A stretch of DNA of 22,590 nt from a virus, in the IMG/VR virus record IMGVR_UViG_3300039106_000072, positions 1 through 22,590 of that record; one strand, given 5' to 3'. Below, piece after piece: positions 8,692 to 20,599 of the stretch (within the stretch, counting starts at the first letter, position 1; the number at the start of each line of letters is the position of its first letter). Below the pieces are notes generated by a model, which worked only from the letters and a program-made list of their open reading frames with translations, was not told where the DNA came from and did not search any database. The translations under genes were made by a program, and so were the position numbers.

Positions 8692-9834
8692 TTAATAGCC
8701 CTCTGTCCAATAAAGAATTACTGCGCCACCACCACCAGCACCAGCAGTAGCACCAATTCCTGCACCACCGCCACCACCTATACCACCATCACCAGCAACG
8801 GTTGATGAAGCACCACCACCGCCACCAAATCCACCATTACCACCAGCACCAACAGTAGCACCAGCAGCACCACCGCCACCACCTATACCACCATCACCAC
8901 CATTACAGGAAGCGAAATATACTGCACCACCACCACCACCGCCAGCACCACCAGTTCCTGCTGGACCAAATCCACCACAACCACCGCCACCACCTAATAA
9001 TGATTTATTAATAATGTCTGTAAAATTTCCGTTAATAATTCCACCTGACCCAGCAATTAAAGCATCTAAACCTGATGCGTTACCAGTTCTTCCTGGAGTT
9101 CCTGGAACTGGTCCACCGCCATAATTCCCAACTTGCGCTGTTGCACTTGCAGATGGTCCAGTAGTACCTTTACTTAAAGCGCCACCACCACCACCACCAC
9201 CATAGCCTGATGTAATACCACCACCATTGCCCCCATTATATAAGCCACCGCCACCGCCATTACCTGTTGATGCAACAGTACCTCCACCTGCACCGCCAAA
9301 ACCACCGCCTCCACCATAGGCTGATGCAAAAGAACCACCGCCCTTTCCTCCTGTTCCATAAGGTGAGCCAGCACCACCACCACCGCCACCACCAGAAGCA
9401 TGAGCGCCACCAGCCCCACCTGTTGCGGTAAATGCTTGTCTTAATGATGATGATGCTGTACCTGTACCACCAGCCCCACCACTAGCAGAAAAAGTACCAC
9501 CAGATGATGATAATAATGTGCCAAATGAGGAAGTCCCTCCAGAACCAGAACCAGCCGTGCCACCAGCACCTATTGTAATGGTTGGTAGCAATTGACCTGG
9601 AACTACATCAACAATTCCCATTGAAAAACCGCCACCACCACCACCACCATAGGCTGATGCACTTGCACCACCACCACCGCCACCCCAAACACATACCATT
9701 ATTTGATACACGTTCTGAGGTACAGTTTCAGTAGAAGTTGTTGCTGTAATTATTTTGTAGTTAGTCCACTTTGGCGGAGCAACCCTTGTCGCTACGTTAG
9801 GTGGTAGCGAATAACCATACATACCTTTATTCAT
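8692..9834 (-). CDS. Glycine-rich receptor-binding (adhesin-like) protein
   Basis: The 380-residue protein has a short non-repetitive N-terminus with WTNYKIITATTSTETVP (about 23-39) and VYQIMVCVWGGGGGG (42-56). The rest is dominated by runs of four to eight Gly, separated by Ala, Ser and Tyr. It ends with AVILYWTEGY. This is the polyglycine pattern of phage adhesins, such as S16-type gp38 tips, which fold into packed polyglycine-II helices and bind outer-membrane proteins. The N-terminal part probably anchors it to the tail or fibre. The start at 9834 has AAGGA seven bases upstream, located inside the 3' end of the endonuclease gene. A smaller Gly-rich relative lies at 18253-19185. Confidence 0.65.
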   Translation of the reverse strand: MNKGMYGYSLPPNVATRVAPPKWTNYKIITATTSTETVPQNVYQIMVCVWGGGGGGASASAYGGGGGGGFSMGIVDVVPGQLLPTITIGAGGTAGSGSGGTSSFGTLLSSSGGTFSASGGAGGTGTASSSLRQAFTATGGAGGAHASGGGGGGGAGSPYGTGGKGGGSFASAYGGGGGFGGAGGGTVASTGNGGGGGLYNGGNGGGITSGYGGGGGGGALSKGTTGPSASATAQVGNYGGGPVPGTPGRTGNASGLDALIAGSGGIINGNFTDIINKSLLGGGGGCGGFGPAGTGGAGGGGGGAVYFASCNGGDGGIGGGGGAAGATVGAGGNGGFGGGGGASSTVAGDGGIGGGGGAGIGATAGAGGGGAVILYWTEGY

Positions 9835-10345
9835 GGCTAAATCCTTGTAAATATGCTATTGAATTTTTCATAATTTCTATATCCTCTTGTAAATAACCTA
9901 TTCCTGCATTGCATGGATGACACAACAAACCTCTAACTTCACCAGTAATATGATTATGGTCTACTGATAAGTTTGATGAATTCTTATTTCTTGAGTCCTT
10001 ACTTCCACAAATGGCGCACTTCCAATTTTGTTTTTCACCAAGTACAAAATAATCTTCTTTAGAAAGCCCATACTTATTTTTTAATCTATATTCTCTCGAT
10101 GTTGCAGATGCTTTATCTTTATTATTTGCATACCATTCTTTTGCTTTGTTCCGAATTTCTTCACTATGCTCTGAGTGATATTTTGCTTTTCTATGTTTAA
10201 TAACTTCTATATTTTTTAATCTATATAATTTATTTTTTATAGAGCAACATTCTTTACATATAGTTACAACGCCATTCTTTTTGCTTTTGTCTTTATGAAA
10301 CTCACTAAACTCTTTGTGAGTTTTACAATAATTACAAATTCTCAA
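9827..10345 (-). CDS. Endonuclease VII-like HNH endonuclease, probably a homing gene
   Basis: The 172-residue protein has an N-terminal zinc-knuckle-like set (Cys4, Cys7, Cys30, Cys33), a basic helical linker and a C-terminal domain with WKCAICG (Cys110, Cys113), LSVDHNHITGEVRGLLCHPC (His130, His132, Cys142, Cys145) and Asn146-Ala-Gly. These are the marks of the T4 gp49 recombination endonuclease VII family, which uses a beta-beta-alpha-metal HNH site to cut DNA. As a stand-alone gene inside a tail operon it is more likely a homing endonuclease than a packaging resolvase. It begins with TTG immediately after the upstream TAA, using GGAGGG inside the upstream gene. Its DNA is visibly more AT-rich than the genes around it, which suggests late arrival. 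Confidence 0.85.
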   Translation of the reverse strand: MRICNYCKTHKEFSEFHKDKSKKNGVVTICKECCSIKNKLYRLKNIEVIKHRKAKYHSEHSEEIRNKAKEWYANNKDKASATSREYRLKNKYGLSKEDYFVLGEKQNWKCAICGSKDSRNKNSSNLSVDHNHITGEVRGLLCHPCNAGIGYLQEDIEIMKNSIAYLQGFSHE

Positions 10346-13512: not shown

Positions 13513-13995
13513 TTATCTCAAATTAGGGCTAAAAGTATGTAGCCTAGCTTTTGCTTCTTTGTATGCTTCATGCGCTAGTTCTGCTGTTTTATGATATCCC
13601 AAAAAATAGCGTTTTTTGTTTACATCTATTTTAGCGTACCATTTTTTATCTTTAAAAAATACTCCAACATATCCAGAAGTATTATTTAATGGAAGTTTTC
13701 TATTTTGAGCATTTTCTAAATCATTAGCTTGGCGCAAATTAGCCAATTTGTTATTTTTTCTATCACCATCAATATGATCTATTTCAAATTCAGGAAAAGA
13801 GCCTATTACATATAGCCATGCTAAACGATGTAACAAATACCCCTTCTTGTCTATTTCCATAGAAAGATATCCATCATTATGACTAGTCCCAACAATAGAA
13901 CCTTTTGCTGAACATCCAGCAGATTTAACTCTAGTAAATAAACCTGTATCTAAATCGTAATGAAAAAACTCTTTTAAACGTGCTTGTGTAAGCAT
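13513..13995 (-). CDS. HNH homing endonuclease with AP2 DNA-binding domain
   Basis: From the ATG at 13995 (MLTQARLKEFFHYD), which has AAGGA eight bases upstream, the protein has 160 residues. LLHRLAWLYVIG and EFEIDHIDGDRKNNKLANLR (about residues 54-87, with His74 and the Asn pair at 81-82) form the HNH_3 nuclease motif. SGYVGVFFKDKKWYAKI onward (about 107-154) is an AP2 domain that binds DNA. This pairing is typical of free-standing phage homing endonucleases. The frame stays open to a TTG at 14082, adding 29 residues without a good ribosome site. The gene separates the capsid gene from its terminator and is more AT-rich than either neighbour, so it is very likely an insertion. Confidence 0.9.
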   Translation of the reverse strand: MLTQARLKEFFHYDLDTGLFTRVKSAGCSAKGSIVGTSHNDGYLSMEIDKKGYLLHRLAWLYVIGSFPEFEIDHIDGDRKNNKLANLRQANDLENAQNRKLPLNNTSGYVGVFFKDKKWYAKIDVNKKRYFLGYHKTAELAHEAYKEAKARLHTFSPNLR

Positions 13996-14086
13996 TTTGT
14001 CATCCTTATCTAATGTTTGAAGTTTGTCAGTAATCCAAGTGAGATAAGCACTTGAAAAGCCTTGCAAAGCCTGTCCTGACAAGCTA

Positions 14087-14102: not shown

Positions 14103-15044
14103 CTACAAGATATCTACTACTGCCCCCGATGCCTTAGGCTGACGAGCTTCTAATGCGTACTCACACACTAACTGTTTAGAAACAGCATCACCTACTGTTG
14201 CTAGGTCTTTTGTTTCGTATGGGCGCAACCATGCTACTGCCCATTTGTCAGATTGAAGTACAAACACGTCACGTGTACGTTGGAAGCGTGATGGAATTGC
14301 TTTTAACTCACCAAAGTCTGAAACATAGACATCAACTGAGGCAAACACAGTTGCATCTTCACCCTTGTCAAAACGAGTAGAGTTACCTGTGAATGTAGAG
14401 AATGTTTGTTTAGCTAATGGCGGTAACAAGATAACGTCTGGCTCACCACCTGCTGTGAAGCATTTTTGCAATACGTTTTTCAAGCGAGCCTCAGTAAACG
14501 CAATTTGTGTACCATCTGTTTGCGCTGTACCTGTTGCAGTTGTGTAAACTGGTGCTACATACGCTGTACCTGCTGTTGCGCCATCTACGTTATCACCAGC
14601 CCAGCCTACTAAACCACGAGTAGTGCGAGGTGATGCTGCTGCTGTTGAGTTTTGTGTCAAACCAAATTCAATGTCGCGTTTTAATTCAAGTGCTGACAAT
14701 GACATTTGATAAGCCATTTCATCTTTGCCACGACCTGCCGCTAATACAGCTTGTTGTGTACCAGAAACAGTGACGTTTTTAGTAGAGATTTGTGTACGGT
14801 TGCTTAGGCGTGTTGTTACTGTTACAGCTTTAGCTACTGCTGTGTCACCCTCAGCCTGTGCATTTGATGCTGCTGATGCTAGGTCTTGAGTTTGCCATTC
14901 GTGCAATGTCGCTGTGGCTTTTGATTTAGCGCACAATGAAAGAAACGGAGTTGCCGTTGGGCTAATGCGATAGATTGCATCTGTTAAATCTTCACGATTA
15001 CCAATAGCACTGGTACTCACAAAGGTGTTGGTTGGTGCTGCCAT
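14103..15044 (-). CDS. Major capsid protein, DUF5309/SU10 type
   Basis: The 313-residue protein starts MAAPTNTFVSTSAIGNRED after a clear AAGGAA. Then LTDAIYRISPTATPFLSLC, TLHEWQTQDLA and TRLSNRTQISTKNVTVSG follow in the order seen in the DUF5309 family, whose type is the head protein of phage SU10. It has an HK97-like fold. Later blocks include ALELKRDIEFGL, PDVILLPPLAKQTFSTF and VFVLQSDKWAVAWLRPYETK. It assembles into the shell around the scaffold encoded just upstream. No cleavage site or N-terminal delta-domain is apparent. It is probably the most highly expressed gene here. Confidence 0.9.
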   Translation of the reverse strand: MAAPTNTFVSTSAIGNREDLTDAIYRISPTATPFLSLCAKSKATATLHEWQTQDLASAASNAQAEGDTAVAKAVTVTTRLSNRTQISTKNVTVSGTQQAVLAAGRGKDEMAYQMSLSALELKRDIEFGLTQNSTAAASPRTTRGLVGWAGDNVDGATAGTAYVAPVYTTATGTAQTDGTQIAFTEARLKNVLQKCFTAGGEPDVILLPPLAKQTFSTFTGNSTRFDKGEDATVFASVDVYVSDFGELKAIPSRFQRTRDVFVLQSDKWAVAWLRPYETKDLATVGDAVSKQLVCEYALEARQPKASGAVVDIL

Positions 15045-15054
15045 GATTTATTCC

Positions 15055-15984
15055 TTATAATAAGTTTGCAAATACTCTAGTAGCATCTTCAATGCTGCCT
15101 GATCTGCGTAATCGGTTCATTGCTGATTTGTGTGCGTCTGCTGGTGCAGAATTCTCACCAGTACCAGATCGTTCAGCCCTTACAGGTGCGGATTGCACAC
15201 GTTTAGTAGCCTCTGGTGACTGTTTTAATAGCTTTCTAAAAGCCATTGCATCACGAATAATCAGCACATCTTTATGATTTGAGATATTGTCTATATCAGC
15301 GTCAGTCCTACCCTCTGATTTTAGAAACTCTCGCATCTCTGCTATGTCAGCCTTTGCCTTCGCCTCATCTTTCCAAGCAGGTAACTTGGCAATTAACTCT
15401 TGCTGTTGTGCTTGCAGGTATGACTGAAGTGCTTGTGTCTGCTCTTGTTGGTTAAGTTGGTTAATTTCTTGCCACTCGTATTGCGTTTGCTGTAACGATG
15501 CTTGTCTAGTTTGTACTAGGTGCTGTTGCTTCAAATACTCTACGGGGTCATTCTCTAACAACTCTTGCCAGTTAATTTGGGATTGCTCTTGTAACGCACC
15601 TTGTAATTGGACAGCGTGCATATTTAACTTCTCTGCATAGGCTTGTCGCTCTTGGTACGCTTGCGCTTTGGCTTGTTCAGCCTCTTTCCGTGTTTCTGCT
15701 ACCTCCATCGTCTTTTTTGTATAATCCGATTGACGTAAGCCGTTCTTGTAGCTCTCTGCAATCTGCTCTGGTGTAAGTGTGACCATCTTGCCGTCTATTT
15801 CAACGGTGATTGCACCTTCCACGCTCTCAGCTTCAGCTTCTACTGGTTCGGCTTCAGTAGTGGGTTCTACTGCCTCGCTAACCTCGTTCTCAATAGGTTC
15901 TTTGGGTTCGAGAATGTTGGCAAAGATATTTGTTGCTTGGTCGATACTTAAATCGCCTGTGGGTTCAGTTGCCTGATTGTCCAT
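15055..15984 (-). CDS. Scaffolding protein
   Basis: From the ATG at 15984 (MDNQATEPTGDLS), with AAAGGAAA upstream, the protein has 309 residues. It begins with an acidic segment rich in Glu and Val (about 35-65). Then GKMVTLTPEQIAESYKNGLR leads into a long Gln/Glu/Ala coiled coil (about 90-200). A basic C-terminus carries SAPVRAERSG and ends RVFANLL. Acidic start, central coiled coil and basic helical end directly before the capsid gene is the classic scaffold layout; the basic tail binds the capsid protein. A GTG 11 codons upstream is in frame but falls within a leader hairpin. Confidence 0.85.
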   Translation of the reverse strand: MDNQATEPTGDLSIDQATNIFANILEPKEPIENEVSEAVEPTTEAEPVEAEAESVEGAITVEIDGKMVTLTPEQIAESYKNGLRQSDYTKKTMEVAETRKEAEQAKAQAYQERQAYAEKLNMHAVQLQGALQEQSQINWQELLENDPVEYLKQQHLVQTRQASLQQTQYEWQEINQLNQQEQTQALQSYLQAQQQELIAKLPAWKDEAKAKADIAEMREFLKSEGRTDADIDNISNHKDVLIIRDAMAFRKLLKQSPEATKRVQSAPVRAERSGTGENSAPADAHKSAMNRLRRSGSIEDATRVFANLL

Positions 15985-16004
15985 GATTTTTCCTTTAGGT
16001 CGTT

Positions 16005-16040
16005 TAGCGGAACTCACCGCTACTAGCGCATCTCTGCGTT
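16005..16040 (-). promoter_or_regulatory. Two hairpins in the scaffold leader
   Basis: On the minus strand, AACGCAGAGATGCGC at 16026-16040 folds as a four-pair stem with a GAGA loop. TAGCGG-TGAGTT-CCGCTA at 16005-16022 folds as a six-pair stem. They lie between the terminator and the Shine-Dalgarno. They may stabilise or process the scaffold/capsid mRNA; this is inferred from structure only. Confidence 0.45.
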
Positions 16041-16344: not shown

Positions 16345-16451
16345 GCTTCGAGTACCTCATCTTTAATTGTTTGAAAAGCCTCAATGTATAATTCATTTTC
16401 AAGGATTTCTTTTGCTCTTGCACCACGCGCTAAATCAATGTCTATTTTCAT
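16164..16451 (-). CDS. Small helical conserved phage protein
   Basis: The 95-residue protein starts MKIDIDLARGARAKEILENE at a TAATG junction with the ADP-ribosyltransferase-like gene. It is highly charged and helical throughout (LYIEAFQTIKDEVLEAWQQS, then REKLYLMLGMLNKVQSTLQ). I recognise this type as a small protein that recurs near portal and scaffold genes in podoviruses; no function is known to me. A role in head assembly is plausible. Its stop (TAG) directly follows GGTTTTT, which could allow a -1 slip into a 20-codon extension. Confidence 0.7.
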   Translation of the reverse strand: MKIDIDLARGARAKEILENELYIEAFQTIKDEVLEAWQQSPSRDLEGREKLYLMLGMLNKVQSTLQTVMETGKIAQAQLAHNQTILDRAKEWAGF

Positions 16452-17284
16452 TACTTCTTCTCTTTCTTGTTGTAAGCATAACCAACACCTGCGGCAGAGC
16501 CTAGACCTAGTAACCCCATCATTTCAGGTGTTGAGTAGCCTAGTAAGTCATTACTGTTAGCATTACTCATATTAAATGCCGCGAATCGTGAACGAACTTG
16601 ATTTGGGTATTTAGTTACAAAATGGTTATCTTCGCCACCGCCTACATTTTCAATCTTGAATGTATCTGTACGTTTCTTGCTAAGAGCATTATTCATATCA
16701 TCATATAAGCCAAAATGAGGTTGAGATTTAACATTCCCCGTTCTTAACATTACAGGATAAACTCTTGGGTTTTCTGAAACTCCGCTTTTAGGTGTTACAT
16801 TCGAATAATCTGAAGCATATTTTTTAGATTCAGAAAACCATGATTTAGGAAGCATTTGGTCAATTTCACCAGTAGTATTTACCCCTGTATAAGCATCTTG
16901 GTCAAACCCCAAAGCATTTGCCCTATCCATAGCAGTATTATTTTCAGGCAATCCATGATTTTTCCATGCGTCTATTCTTGCATCTTCTATTTTTTGTTCC
17001 CATTTAGTAAGTGGTTTAATAGCATCAGACATCTTGCCACCCTTACTTGCAATCATACCTGCCATGCTAGGAATAAACGGTAACACCCCTAATCCATTTA
17101 ATGCAGCACTTCCATAGTTACCATTTTTAATGTCATTAGCAGCAAGTAAGCCTGATTGAATGTCGCCAGTTACAGGTGCAAAGCTATTAGCCAATAACCC
17201 AATATCTACTAATTCATTTTTTAAGTTGTAATCTTTAGGTAATTTAGGCGTAAATCTGCCAAAGCCTTGATTAAAATCAGCCAT
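16451..17284 (-). CDS. ADP-ribosyltransferase-like phage protein, probably virion-associated
   Basis: The 277-residue protein has an N-terminal hydrophobic Gly-rich region (about 25-85, including NGLGVLPFIPSMAGMIAS). A domain follows with DRANALGFDQDAYTGVNTTG (120-139), WFSESKKYASDY (149-160), VYPVMLRTGNV (175-185) and NHFVTKYPNQVRSRFAAF (220-237). The order matches phage ADP-ribosyltransferase-like domains of the form 'ALGF-x-Y[HR]G ... YA ... P-x-QIRS'. At the usual catalytic His/Arg the sequence has Thr133, and at the usual Glu it has His221, so activity is doubtful. A second hydrophobic Gly/Ala segment (about 257-271) precedes a Lys-rich end. It could be ejected into the host. The ATG has AAGGA six bases upstream. 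Confidence 0.55.
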   Translation of the reverse strand: MADFNQGFGRFTPKLPKDYNLKNELVDIGLLANSFAPVTGDIQSGLLAANDIKNGNYGSAALNGLGVLPFIPSMAGMIASKGGKMSDAIKPLTKWEQKIEDARIDAWKNHGLPENNTAMDRANALGFDQDAYTGVNTTGEIDQMLPKSWFSESKKYASDYSNVTPKSGVSENPRVYPVMLRTGNVKSQPHFGLYDDMNNALSKKRTDTFKIENVGGGEDNHFVTKYPNQVRSRFAAFNMSNANSNDLLGYSTPEMMGLLGLGSAAGVGYAYNKKEKK

Positions 17285-17311: not shown

Positions 17312-18241
17312 TTATGCCGCCATTAAAAGTAATTCAACATCTTCTTCATCAAGATACTGCTCATACATTGCTAATAAAGCCTGATATTTACGCTCATTAA
17401 GTAATTGCTCTGCCTGTGCGTTAGCTTTTAGTACAGATAGCATAGCATTTACGTTGTAAACAGGCTGTAAGGCTATTTCCTGCGCCTGTGGCTCGTTTTC
17501 TATTGTTTCTGATATGTCTATGTCAATGAGTGCATTTAATTCATCTGTGGCGCTTAGTTTTTCATCATTATTGAGATGATCTACCGCGTCTTGTTTATTC
17601 TTAAAGACAAGTATCTGATTGTCTTTGTGAATGATGTAATTTTTCTTATAAGTGCCATATGAACCTGCACCGCTAGAGGTTGTGGCTGAAATATAATCAT
17701 CATTAGCACTGATGCCGGTATAGGTATAAGCGCCTACGCTTAAATTATCTAGGTAAGCAACTGCCCCTGTTTTAACATCGGTAATATCTTTGCCAACGTA
17801 GCTATATGCACCTGTGGCTAAATTATCATTTTTAGCAAGTACGTCAACAACGGTCTTACCTACTAAAGAATAACTACCAACCGATAATATATCTGCGATA
17901 ACTTTACTATCGCTAATACTTACCCCTGCGTAAGTATAAGTACCCTTGCTTAAAGTATCGTTCTTAGCAAGTAAATCACTAGCATTAACGCCTGTGTAAG
18001 TATATGTACCTTTAGAAAGTGTATCGTTGTGAGCAAATAAGTCTGTGACTGTTTTGCCTGTGTAGGTATAAGTACCAACTAATAATGTATCAGCATAAGC
18101 TGTTGATGAGCTAGTTTTAACGTCATTAACAGCAATACCTGTATAGACGTAAGCACCTACGCTTAAGTTATCGGCATAACTGGTTATACCACTAGGTAAA
18201 CTACTTACTGGTAAGTATGATACTGGGCTAAAACCTAACAT
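17312..18241 (-). CDS. Repeat-containing virion surface/fibre-like protein
   Basis: The 309-residue protein starts MLGFSPVSYLPVSSLPSG. It then has seven repeats of 22-28 residues from about 22 to 184, each of the form DxLsxGxYxYxGxxxxD, for example DTLSKGTYTYTGVNASD. I recall similar GxYxxTG repeats in other phage tail proteins, where they presumably form a beta-structure. The remainder, from about 200, changes in character: NYIIHKDNQILVFKNKQDAV, an acidic stretch, and a helical end rich in Leu and Glu. AAAGGGG seven bases before the ATG supports the start. The gene follows a Gly-rich adhesin-like gene. Function is unknown; receptor binding or tail decoration is inferred. Confidence 0.6.
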   Translation of the reverse strand: MLGFSPVSYLPVSSLPSGITSYADNLSVGAYVYTGIAVNDVKTSSSTAYADTLLVGTYTYTGKTVTDLFAHNDTLSKGTYTYTGVNASDLLAKNDTLSKGTYTYAGVSISDSKVIADILSVGSYSLVGKTVVDVLAKNDNLATGAYSYVGKDITDVKTGAVAYLDNLSVGAYTYTGISANDDYISATTSSGAGSYGTYKKNYIIHKDNQILVFKNKQDAVDHLNNDEKLSATDELNALIDIDISETIENEPQAQEIALQPVYNVNAMLSVLKANAQAEQLLNERKYQALLAMYEQYLDEEDVELLLMAA

Positions 18242-18252
18242 TGTTTACCCCT

Positions 18253-19185
18253 TTACCAGCACGTTATAATCGCAAACGAAGCCCCACCATAACCAACCAC
18301 ACCAGCAGTAGAAGTTGTCAAAGCTCCTCCAACACCACCACCACCACATCCTAAGTCACCATTACCCCCATTGCCTTGTACTAACCCTGTGGTTGTCGCA
18401 GTACCATGTGTTGATGCTGAACCAGTACCGCCATAACGATACCCTATATTAAAGATAGGCTTCATACCTGCTTTACCAAAATCTGCTGGTACTGTTGCTG
18501 TGGCTGAACCTGTACCACCTATTAATGTAGGGAACTCACCTGCACCTGTAATTGAGCCACCATTAGTACCTGTGGCTGCTGCTGCTGGAAGTCCACCACC
18601 ACCTGTCCCGCCTGTAACAAAAGCACCTGTGACGGGTAATGTTAAGTTGGATGCTGTAACTGCTGCGCCACCTGCTGTACCTACTTGTGAGGCAAAACAT
18701 ACTGAGGTAATAAATGCCCAACCTAACGGCATATTCGCTGCTGTGGCAATGGCTGCGGCAGTACCAACTGTACCACCTGTACCTGCTGAAGCATTACCAC
18801 CATGTAGTCCGCCATTGGCAAATACTAATATGTTGTTAGCCGTATTAACTGGTGCAATAGAGATTGTACTTGCAAAGTTAGCTGTGGCTGTTGGCTTTTG
18901 TCCTGCTAGAGATAAGTACAGTCTATCAGGTAAAAAGTGTAAAGGTACAACAATGTTAGTAATAGCACCTGATTGTCCACCTGCCCCACCAGCACTAACC
19001 GAGTTAGCACCAATAACACCTGTACCACCATTGCCACCTGCGCCCACTAGCATAATGTGTGCCATAGTTTTGCCACGAGGCTTAAGCCATGTTTTCCATG
19101 CCGTACCTACGGCAACTGCATCGCCTATAAAGGTTTGTACCTCAGCCGAGCTAGTAGATACAGGTATATGAGAAAAGTCTAACAT
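18253..19185 (-). CDS. Glycine-rich adhesin-like protein (second copy)
   Basis: The 310-residue protein starts MLDFSHIPVSTSSAEVQTF. The TAWKTWLKPRGKTMAHIMLV segment (about 28-47) leads into a Gly-rich domain with GAGGNGG and AGGAGGQ and a non-glycine strand region (IVVPLHFLPDRLYLSLAG). It ends SFAIITCW. Layout and ends parallel the 380-residue Gly-rich protein at 8692-9834, but Gly runs are shorter and Ala/Thr more common. It is probably another host-contact or fibre-tip protein. The ATG directly follows the stop of the 55-residue gene, whose 3' end supplies GGGG as the ribosome site. Confidence 0.6.
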   Translation of the reverse strand: MLDFSHIPVSTSSAEVQTFIGDAVAVGTAWKTWLKPRGKTMAHIMLVGAGGNGGTGVIGANSVSAGGAGGQSGAITNIVVPLHFLPDRLYLSLAGQKPTATANFASTISIAPVNTANNILVFANGGLHGGNASAGTGGTVGTAAAIATAANMPLGWAFITSVCFASQVGTAGGAAVTASNLTLPVTGAFVTGGTGGGGLPAAAATGTNGGSITGAGEFPTLIGGTGSATATVPADFGKAGMKPIFNIGYRYGGTGSASTHGTATTTGLVQGNGGNGDLGCGGGGVGGALTTSTAGVVGYGGASFAIITCW

Positions 19186-19353
19186 TTACACACCCCAAAC
19201 TGGGATTTCCCAGCTTCTATAAATATAACTAATTGGCTCTTGTGGCGTTTCAACGGTTACACCAAGCAAATCCGTAAATCGTTCTTGACCTATTTCGTTT
19301 ATCTCTTGATAACACGCTAATGAACCATCAATGATTACATTAAAGTATTCCAT
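19186..19353 (-). CDS. Small protein of 55 residues, unknown function
   Basis: This short gene fills the gap between the 149-residue beta-protein and the Gly-rich protein. It starts at an ATG four bases after the upstream stop and ends with TAA directly against the next ATG. The protein begins MEYFNVIIDGSLACYQ. It is acidic, with an aromatic C-terminus (YIYRSWEIPVWGV). The perfect fit between neighbours and the protein-like composition argue that it is real. It may be a small chaperone or linker for the Gly-rich product, by position only. Confidence 0.7.
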   Translation of the reverse strand: MEYFNVIIDGSLACYQEINEIGQERFTDLLGVTVETPQEPISYIYRSWEIPVWGV

Positions 19354-19357
19354 GAAT

Positions 19358-19807
19358 TTAATACTTTCCGCCTATTGCAGTGACTGCCCAGCCCGTTGTG
19401 ACTGCTGTACCAAGACCTGCATATAGTTTATAACCAGCAGGTAAAGCAATGTTTAAAGTAAGTTCTACATCAGGTGTTGCCGCCACTATGGTATTTGCTA
19501 CTGCTGGCAAACCTACCTCACCCACCAATACGTTATTGACGGCTGTGGCATTTGTTGAACCATTGTTAATCCATATACGTAATACTGAGGCTGCGGATGT
19601 ACCTGTTAATCCACAGCATTTAGCTCGTACACGTTGGACAAATCCACCATTAGTAGCATCTGCTGAAAAGATTTGTTTGACGTTTGCATCTGTACCATCA
19701 TAACTAGATACATTACCTGCTGTCATAGCAGAGGTGAATAAGGCTGATGTGCCTGACCATTGAATGTCGCCTACCTTGCTGTAAATTGGGTCACTATTTC
19801 CTGCCAT
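19358..19807 (-). CDS. Small beta-rich virion protein, paralogue of the 133-residue gene
   Basis: The 149-residue protein starts MAGNSDPIYSKVGDIQWSG after a strong AAGGAGT. It is a Thr/Ala/Val-rich beta-domain with VRAKCCGLTGTSAASVLRIW, LPAGYKLYAGLG and a closing AIGGKY. These align with blocks of the 133-residue protein at 10346-10747 (ASLINL, LPTGYSLRA, AYGGSF). It is probably an exposed tail or head-fibre subunit. I know no function for this family. Confidence 0.6.
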   Translation of the reverse strand: MAGNSDPIYSKVGDIQWSGTSALFTSAMTAGNVSSYDGTDANVKQIFSADATNGGFVQRVRAKCCGLTGTSAASVLRIWINNGSTNATAVNNVLVGEVGLPAVANTIVAATPDVELTLNIALPAGYKLYAGLGTAVTTGWAVTAIGGKY

Positions 19808-19817
19808 GTCCTACTCC

Positions 19818-20174
19818 TTAAGGTAAAGCCAAACCACGACTTTGAGCTGATTGCAAACCAATATTTGCGTTGTCTAATATCTCAGTTGCGGCTGTTATAA
19901 ATACGTCTTTAGTACCAGCACTAAAATTGACTAAAGCATTACTATTGCTTGAGCTATGTACTGACTCTCTAGTTAAGCCTGTTGTACCATTAAACGTGCC
20001 ATAGCCTACTTCCCATTCACTACCTCCTACAATACAATAGGGTACTAAAGTATTCCCTGTACCATAGGCAGTAGCAAATGTTTGGTAGCCCGTTGGGGCT
20101 GTACCAGATAGAGTAATAGCAGTAGTGCCTGTGCTAGTCGTACTATCTTTTGTTCTGTCGGCTAATCTAGGCAT
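19818..20174 (-). CDS. Fibre-domain-like virion protein
   Basis: The 118-residue protein reads MPRLADRTKDSTTSTGTTAI, then GYQTFATAYGTGNTLVPYCI, GSEWEVGYGTFNGTTGLTRE and ALVNFSAGTKDVFITAA. This set of motifs is the short beta-module often found in phage fibre and virion proteins, where it usually sits before a fibre shaft. Here it stands alone as a small gene. It is coupled to the upstream gene by TAATG. It probably forms part of a tail or neck appendage. Confidence 0.65.
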   Translation of the reverse strand: MPRLADRTKDSTTSTGTTAITLSGTAPTGYQTFATAYGTGNTLVPYCIVGGSEWEVGYGTFNGTTGLTRESVHSSSNSNALVNFSAGTKDVFITAATEILDNANIGLQSAQSRGLALP

Positions 20175-20599
20175 TACGCAACCGTAAATGTGCCATTAGC
20201 AGCGTCTAGTGTAGGTGTATAAGTATCACCTGCCGCCATTGCTGTTGCACTACCTCTATCCCAATAGCCAATACATTGAGTTTGAGTTAAGTTATAAAGA
20301 ATGACATAGCGGAATGTGAAACCACCACCTGAAGCTGTCCATGTGGGTGAGGCTGGTGCTGCTAGTACTACTTTGTATGTACCTGCCGCTGCTGTTGCAC
20401 TTGTTACAGTACAGTTCACACCACCTGCGGTATATCCCCCACTTGTAGATAGTTCAGTCGCACTTACCGCAGTCGTATTAGTTGCTACGTTTGGGGCTGT
20501 GTTTGATAGGATTAGTTGCCAAGTGTCAGAGCCAGCGTTACCGCCTTCCATCATCTTTTCAATACCTAGCTCATACTTTACATACGTTAATGTTGCCAT
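20174..20599 (-). CDS. Small virion protein downstream of portal
   Basis: The 141-residue protein starts MATLTYVKYELGIEKMMEGG, then DTWQLILSNTAPNVATNTT, and a beta-rich body with GFTFRYVILYNLT and CIGYWDRGS. It recurs in phages near portal or tail genes as a structural protein of unknown function. The start has AAGGA seven bases upstream, reaching over the portal stop. It is followed by a TAATG junction. A head-tail or fibre role is inferred. Confidence 0.65.
   Translation of the reverse strand: MATLTYVKYELGIEKMMEGGNAGSDTWQLILSNTAPNVATNTTAVSATELSTSGGYTAGGVNCTVTSATAAAGTYKVVLAAPASPTWTASGGGFTFRYVILYNLTQTQCIGYWDRGSATAMAAGDTYTPTLDAANGTFTVA

What the first reader, a model, noticed from the sequence alone, without database searches (positions are those of the whole stretch)
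16451..17284. ADP-ribosyltransferase-like protein among head genes, with changed active-site positions
Motif order and the end block PNQVRSRFAAF match phage ART-like domains, and hydrophobic Gly-rich segments at both ends suggest membrane contact. The expected His/Arg (Thr133) and Glu (His221) are replaced. It may be an ejected effector with unusual chemistry or an inactive fold kept for structure. Position between fibre-like genes and scaffold suggests it is packaged in the virion.
Basis: partly seen in the sequence, partly recalled or inferred. Interest (0 to 1): 0.6.

Follow-up and report, generated by a model that had tools for sequence, protein, structure and literature searches.

The report
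Decayed ADP-ribosyltransferase-like phage virion-operon protein
A phage gene in the capsid-building operon encodes a relative of phage enzymes thought to be injected into bacteria to tag host molecules, but this copy lacks the histidine almost all its relatives keep, so it is probably a non-working relic or a binding domain rather than an active enzyme.

Summary
The ORF is real: minus strand, 16451-17284, 277 aa, between a fibre-like gene and the small gene before the scaffold. It is a divergent homologue of phage ART-PolyVal (PF18760) proteins. Pfam alone scores it below cut-off (14.4 vs 31.2 bits), but it matches phage relatives that pass that cut-off (L264, E 7.5e-31), and its modelled fold retrieves PARP and diphtheria-type ARTs. 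One relative, L319, carries a polyvalent protein (LPD23, zincin motif, ART) in the same slot and gene order.

The active-site reading is half right. The motif-I histidine is H in 168 and R in 7 of 176 non-redundant domains; the window has T, and one other phage (L396) independently has T. His221 is not a lost Glu: that position is variable family-wide (E, H, T, V, N) and is also His in the closest relative, L284. The membrane evidence is weak.

Best reading: a shortened, horizontally acquired relative of ejected 'polyvalent' ART proteins. Its catalysis is probably lost or strongly reduced, and its packaging is inferred from context only. Known kind, unusual active site; modest interest.

The parts
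16451..17284 (-). 277-aa ART-PolyVal-like protein gene (the finding)
   Evidence: ORF; homologues; fold
17030..17257 (-). N-terminal hydrophobic Gly/Ala/Pro module, residues 10-85 (PVTGDIQSGLLAANDIKNGNYGSAALNGLGVLPFIPSMAG)
   Evidence: 47% identity over 76 aa to N terminus of L308; present in L299, L308, L230, L264, L333; low-confidence in model
16535..17005 (-). ART-like domain, residues 94-250
   Evidence: A3 model pLDDT 89.3; PDB and BFVD fold hits; weak PF18760 hit 148-212
16886..16888 (-). Thr133 (ACA), the motif-I position that is His in 168 and Arg in 7 of 176 relatives
16838..16840 (-). Trp149, motif-II aromatic position (F/W/Y in 56 of 91 relatives)
16805..16807 (-). Tyr160, second aromatic position, retained (Y in 55 of 91)
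16622..16624 (-). His221, front edge of beta-5; variable in the family and also His in L284
16574..16606 (-). PNQVRSRFAAF end block, residues 227-237, hallmark of this phage sub-family
16460..16528 (-). C-terminal hydrophobic Gly-rich tail, residues 253-275, predicted helix
   Evidence: similar tails in L262, L215, L222
16164..16451 (-). 95-aa gene directly downstream (stop/start overlap TAATG); homologue follows the ART gene in L319/L187
   Evidence: phrog_8161 E 3.3e-9; synteny
15055..16017 (-). head scaffolding protein
   Evidence: phrog_3927 E 7.2e-48
14103..15044 (-). SU10-type major capsid protein
   Evidence: PF17236 E 8.5e-91
17312..18241 (-). 309-aa fibre-like gene upstream; its C terminus aligns with the 538-aa gene in the same place in L319
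20603..22573 (-). portal protein
   Evidence: phrog_1216 E 2.5e-115

Best explanation
It is a short relative of the phage 'polyvalent' ADP-ribosyltransferase proteins (ART-PolyVal): a small hydrophobic N-terminal module, a C-terminal ART-fold domain and the RSRFAAF tail. It is made late with the capsid genes and most likely packaged into the particle and released with the DNA. The ART domain has lost the NAD-gripping histidine of strand 1 (Thr133), so it is most likely inactive or nearly so as an ADP-ribosyltransferase. It either persists as a binding or structural domain or is decaying after horizontal acquisition. Shown here: homology, fold, gene position and synteny, and the His-to-Thr change. 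Inferred: late expression, packaging, ejection, loss of catalysis.
For: Homology: phmmer E 7.5e-31 to L264, which itself scores 54.5 bits to PF18760; 48 of 64 aligned relatives match PF18760 at E<=0.1 and one matches PARP at 2.2e-4. Fold: domain model pLDDT 89.3, and the listed top 50 PDB matches are all ARTs; ART-PolyVal-annotated BFVD entries from E 7.9e-7. Slot: L319 has portal, three small genes, fibre-like gene, LPD23+HELQH+ART protein, g95 homologue, scaffold, MCP in the window's order. All 45 ART loci holding a recognisable head gene have the two co-directional. Active site: motif I H168/R7/T1 of 176; the window's codon ACA differs from either His codon at all three bases. Its tree branch is 1.01 against 0.39 for its nearest relative L284 and a median of 0.45. 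In PARP13 and RCD1, losing two or more NAD-binding residues goes with inactivity (PMC7532188); replacing the equivalent His in diphtheria toxin cut activity at least 70-fold (quoted in PMC7955679).
Against: The ORF is intact, with a ribosome-site-like start and coupled stop, which argues against simple decay. Tyr160, the aromatic at 149 and the whole RSRFAAF block are kept. Seven relatives use Arg at the same place, so the position tolerates some change. PDB fold matches are only E 1e-3 to 7e-3 with TM 0.40-0.49. No NAD docking or residue-level superposition was possible. Packaging rests on neighbours only; no ART was found in the 50 phage records checked that share the head genes, so nothing in this phage group requires it.
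Confidence: 0.62

Rival explanations
1. An active but unconventional NAD-using enzyme: Thr133 or another residue replaces the histidine and the T-W-Y-H site does altered chemistry (NADase, slow mono-ADP-ribosylation, or a non-protein target).
For: A second phage (L396) independently has Thr at this position in an otherwise intact zincin+ART protein; Tyr160 and the fold are kept; motif I also changes to Arg in 7 relatives, 4 of them with Glu at the beta-5 site, so the site is evolvable.
Against: His or Arg in 175 of 176 relatives; longer branch of its pair; no second acidic residue clearly retained at 226, which is D/N in 77 of 91 and Y here.
Confidence: 0.13
2. A structural or ejection-machinery protein that merely kept an ART fold as scaffold; its function is mechanical (head, connector or membrane), not effector-like.
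For: Position in the structural block; hydrophobic N-terminal and C-terminal segments shared with relatives; the flanking small gene is conserved beside it in L319 and L187.
Against: Phages with the most similar head genes lack it and carry other cargo in the slot, such as an esterase-like protein in L082, so it is accessory; hydropathy too low for a clear transmembrane helix.
Confidence: 0.15
3. Assembly error or recent pseudogene: the Thr arises from compensating single-base indels in a metagenomic contig.
For: tat-cat-ggg to tat-aca-ggg can be written as one inserted and one deleted base (sequence, inference); a single sequence is known; two extra residues follow the motif.
Against: Needs two compensating events or three substitutions; the other frames are closed around it; the rest of the ORF is intact; Thr recurs independently in L396.
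Confidence: 0.05
4. Unrelated to ARTs; the resemblance is only the RSRFAAF block.
For: Pfam score below cut-off; no match in 50,697 annotated phage records at E 0.01.
Against: Homology spans residues 10-263; fold search returns ARTs.
Confidence: 0.02

Closest known systems
ART-PolyVal (PF18760), ART domain of phage polyvalent proteins (Iyer et al. 2017, PMC5512222)
   Same: Homologous domain, same order of motifs, C-terminal place in the protein, RSRFAAF end block shared with relatives that score above Pfam's cut-off, head-gene neighbourhood.
   Different: Scores 14.4 bits against a cut-off of 31.2; motif-I His is Thr; Tyr instead of D/N at 226; short single-domain protein with no zincin or LPD domain.
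Polyvalent LPD23 + ART proteins of L319 (IMGVR_UViG_3300003499_000007) and Myoviridae sp. ctTUS972
   Same: L319: identical slot between fibre-like gene and g95-scaffold-MCP, 34% identity over the ART part. ctTUS972: same motif order and RSRFAAF tail.
   Different: 663 or 679 aa with an LPD23 match (weak in ctTUS972) and, in L319, a HELQH metallopeptidase motif; motif I reads YHGT.
L284 ART protein (nearest relative)
   Same: Same W149, Y160, H221 site residues, VGGG...HFV strand, 39% identity over 143 columns.
   Different: Histidine retained in motif I; different N-terminal half; lies directly upstream of portal.
T4 Alt (packaged ART)
   Same: Precedent for an ART carried in the head and injected (PMC5512222).
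   Different: R-S-E clade (PMC5512222); no sequence link tested here.
Pseudo-PARPs (PARP13/ZAP, TASOR, RCD1)
   Same: ART fold with lost NAD-binding residues (PMC7532188).
   Different: Eukaryotic; different family; their inactivity is measured, here it is inferred.

Membership tests
ART-PolyVal (PF18760) | Score above Pfam gathering threshold | tested here: not met
   14.4 bits against 31.2
ART-PolyVal (PF18760) | Homology to accepted members | tested here: met
   E 7.5e-31 to L264 (54.5 bits to PF18760); 48 of 64 relatives match the profile
ART-PolyVal (PF18760) | ART fold | tested here: met
   Model pLDDT 89.3; top 50 PDB hits all ARTs at E 1e-3 to 7e-3, TM 0.40-0.49; BFVD ART-PolyVal entries from E 7.9e-7
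ART-PolyVal (PF18760) | His in strand 1 | tested here: not met
   Thr133; relatives H168, R7, T1 of 176
ART-PolyVal (PF18760) | Tyr in strand 2 | tested here: inconclusive
   Trp149; relatives themselves F25/W16/Y15 of 91
ART-PolyVal (PF18760) | Asp in strand 5 | tested here: inconclusive
   Candidate column 226 is D47/N30, Tyr in window; which Asp is catalytic was not established
ART-PolyVal (PF18760) | NAD-dependent transferase activity | not testable with these tools
   needs biochemistry
Phage polyvalent protein | Several unrelated enzymatic domains in one polypeptide | tested here: not met
   Only one recognisable domain in 277 aa
Virion-packaged, ejected effector | Present in the virion and delivered | not testable with these tools
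   Only genomic context
H-Y-E ARTs (PARP/diphtheria type) | His and Glu of the triad | tested here: not met
   Thr133 and His221

The most novel reading that the evidence does not exclude
Phages repeatedly retool the packaged ART domain by replacing the NAD-binding histidine with Thr or Arg, turning it into an NAD/ADP-ribose-binding or differently reacting ejected protein, for example one that intercepts NAD-derived defence signals.
Probability: 0.07. Interest if true: 0.7.

Novelty: new variant of a known kind. Interest (0 to 1): 0.3.

Why it matters
Packaged phage ARTs are one of the commonest predicted first-strike effectors, yet members are usually annotated as enzymes by profile alone. 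This case shows a member that the profile misses and whose catalytic histidine is gone, and that an in-place relative with an intact site exists, so activity against binding or structural roles can be tested with a matched pair. The alignment also shows that the Glu usually expected is not a family feature.

Tried and rejected
1) Direct search with the single protein (phages, plasmids, viral and genome contigs) found no usable relative; a DNA pattern for IRSRFAAFDP opened the family. 2) Small matches in L061/L066-L068 at residues 212-236 lie in a wrong frame of the capsid gene: chance. 3) The match to phage PseuP_222 residues 16-88 is a hypothetical protein between tail genes with no shared pattern: rejected as chance. 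4) N-terminal similarity to a plasmid HNH toxin (39% over 46 aa) suggested a toxin-delivery module; repeating with L308's N terminus found nothing in plasmids or phages and Pfam gave no domain: left as a weak lead. 5) Counting D238, P239 and I230 as decay was rejected because the relatives were selected on IRSRFAAF(DP); a second sample selected on VRSRFAAF was drawn. 6) Uniqueness of Thr133 was rejected: L396 has it too. 7) Close relatives sharing VGGG...HFV: only L284. 8) Position 221 as lost Glu: rejected.

Full report
What is there. The coordinates hold a complete ORF of 277 aa on the minus strand; the plus strand is closed in the given frame. It begins 27 bases after the 309-aa fibre-like gene ends, behind an AAGGAT-type site, and its stop overlaps the start of the next gene, TAATG. 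The window is a virus record of 22,590 bases with portal, scaffold and SU10-type capsid genes, a DNA-ejection-type protein and several fibre-like genes.

Is it an ART relative? Pfam alone would not say so: PF18760 scores 14.4 bits against a cut-off of 31.2. Single-sequence searches found nothing usable, but one weak match in the P22-like phage ctTUS972 carries the same NTAMDRA...GFD...AY(H)G...RSRFAAFDP order and a full-strength ART-PolyVal domain elsewhere in the same protein. A DNA pattern for IRSRFAAFDP then opened a large phage family. The window protein matches it at E 7.5e-31 (L264), 2e-25 (L215) and so on, from residue 10 to 263. L264 and L286 themselves pass the Pfam cut-off, and 48 of 64 relatives match PF18760 at E 0.1 or better.

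Fold. AlphaFold2 with 64 aligned sequences gives mean pLDDT 73 with the domain near 90; the domain alone with 48 sequences gives 89.3. All 50 PDB chains listed in each search are tankyrase, PARP or diphtheria-toxin-type ARTs, though at E 1e-3 to 7e-3 and TM 0.40-0.49 for the domain, so the link is clear but distant. Viral models annotated ART-PolyVal appear from E 7.9e-7.

Active site. In 91 non-redundant relatives the column of Thr133 is H88, R3. A second sample, selected on VRSRFAAF rather than IRSRFAAF, gives H46, R4, T1 of 51. Counting every domain that covers the column gives H168, R7, T1 of 176. The one Thr is L396, a HELQH-motif plus ART protein directly upstream of portal. The codon ACA differs from either His codon at all three positions and the neighbouring frames are closed, so a single sequencing slip cannot explain it. 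The column of His221 is E22, V14, T13, H11, N7 and others. It sits at the start of strand 5 in the model (221-224), the place of the canonical Glu, but the family does not keep a Glu there. The nearest relative, L284, also has His, Trp149 and Tyr160. Iyer et al. describe this family as His-Tyr-Asp (PMC5512222). So one change is window-specific among its near relatives (His to Thr) and one is inherited (His221). Position 226, usually D or N, is Tyr here. Which Asp is catalytic could not be settled.

Ascertainment. Relatives were chosen by the RSRFAAF block, so residues 230-239 are conserved by construction; the window's V230, N238 and M239 are not evidence of decay. Columns 110 and 133 were not selected on; the window departs at both.

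Context. In L319 (38 kb) the order is portal, three small genes, fibre-like 538-aa gene, 663-aa LPD23+HELQH+ART protein, g95 homologue, scaffold, capsid, matching the window's order apart from one extra Gly-rich gene in the window. L187, L318 and L320 repeat the ART-g95-scaffold-capsid part of it. The flanking fibre-like genes share a C terminus. Elsewhere ART genes often abut the portal gene; in all 45 loci with a recognisable head gene the ART gene is on the same strand. Yet in 50 phage records found through their scaffold or capsid genes the ART is absent (control one search finds it in 7 of 7), and in the closest one, L082, the slot carries an esterase-like protein. The gene is thus an accessory in a cargo slot of the structural operon. 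Surveys of phage ARTs take such placement as a sign of head packaging (PMC9503650); that step is inference here.

Evolution. In a tree of 92 domains the window pairs with L284 (94/77; the bootstrap had not settled) on a branch of 1.01 against 0.39, compatible with relaxed constraint but not proof.

Membrane. The most hydrophobic 19-residue stretch scores 1.47 (residues 61-79); the C-terminal one 0.85. Both segments recur in relatives, so they are conserved parts, but a membrane span is not indicated.

Verdict. Homology and fold are firm; the system is a known kind. What is unusual is the motif-I Thr in a short stand-alone form. Likely a pseudo- or weakened ART carried in the virion operon. As an enzyme it should not be filed as an ADP-ribosyltransferase, because a defining residue was tested and is missing; as a lineage it belongs beside ART-PolyVal.

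Noticed in passing
L416, L445, L467, L465 (and L250, L258, L260): Seven relatives have Arg instead of His in motif I; in four of them the strand-5 site is Glu (RGS...WWSE...VWEAL), an R...E arrangement inside an otherwise H-type family, as if the active site switched class.
   Followed up: partly
L396:2102-4123: A second, independent His-to-Thr change in motif I, in a protein with a HELQH metallopeptidase motif upstream of the portal gene.
   Followed up: partly
L284:1942-3234: The protein may hold a second, degenerate ART-like stretch in its N-terminal half (EWFSETPDLANVYAG...).
   Followed up: no
window 17030-17257; L160:2399-3343: The N-terminal module resembles (39% over 46 aa) the N terminus of a plasmid-borne WHH/HNH nuclease toxin-like protein, hinting at a shared delivery or processing module; not reproduced with a relative as query.
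   Followed up: partly
window 9827-10345 and 13513-14082: Two HNH-type endonuclease genes (Endonuclease VII-like; HNH_3 plus AP2) sit between structural genes, the second directly next to the capsid gene: likely homing endonucleases.
   Followed up: no
window 17312-20599 compared with L082:5401-6945: The interval between portal and the g95 gene is a variable cargo slot: fibre-like genes plus ART in the window, one esterase-like protein in the nearest relative.
   Followed up: partly
window 8692-9834 and 18253-19185: Two long Gly-rich fibre-like proteins, one in each half of the structural block; the first coincides with the strongest GC skew of the window.
   Followed up: no
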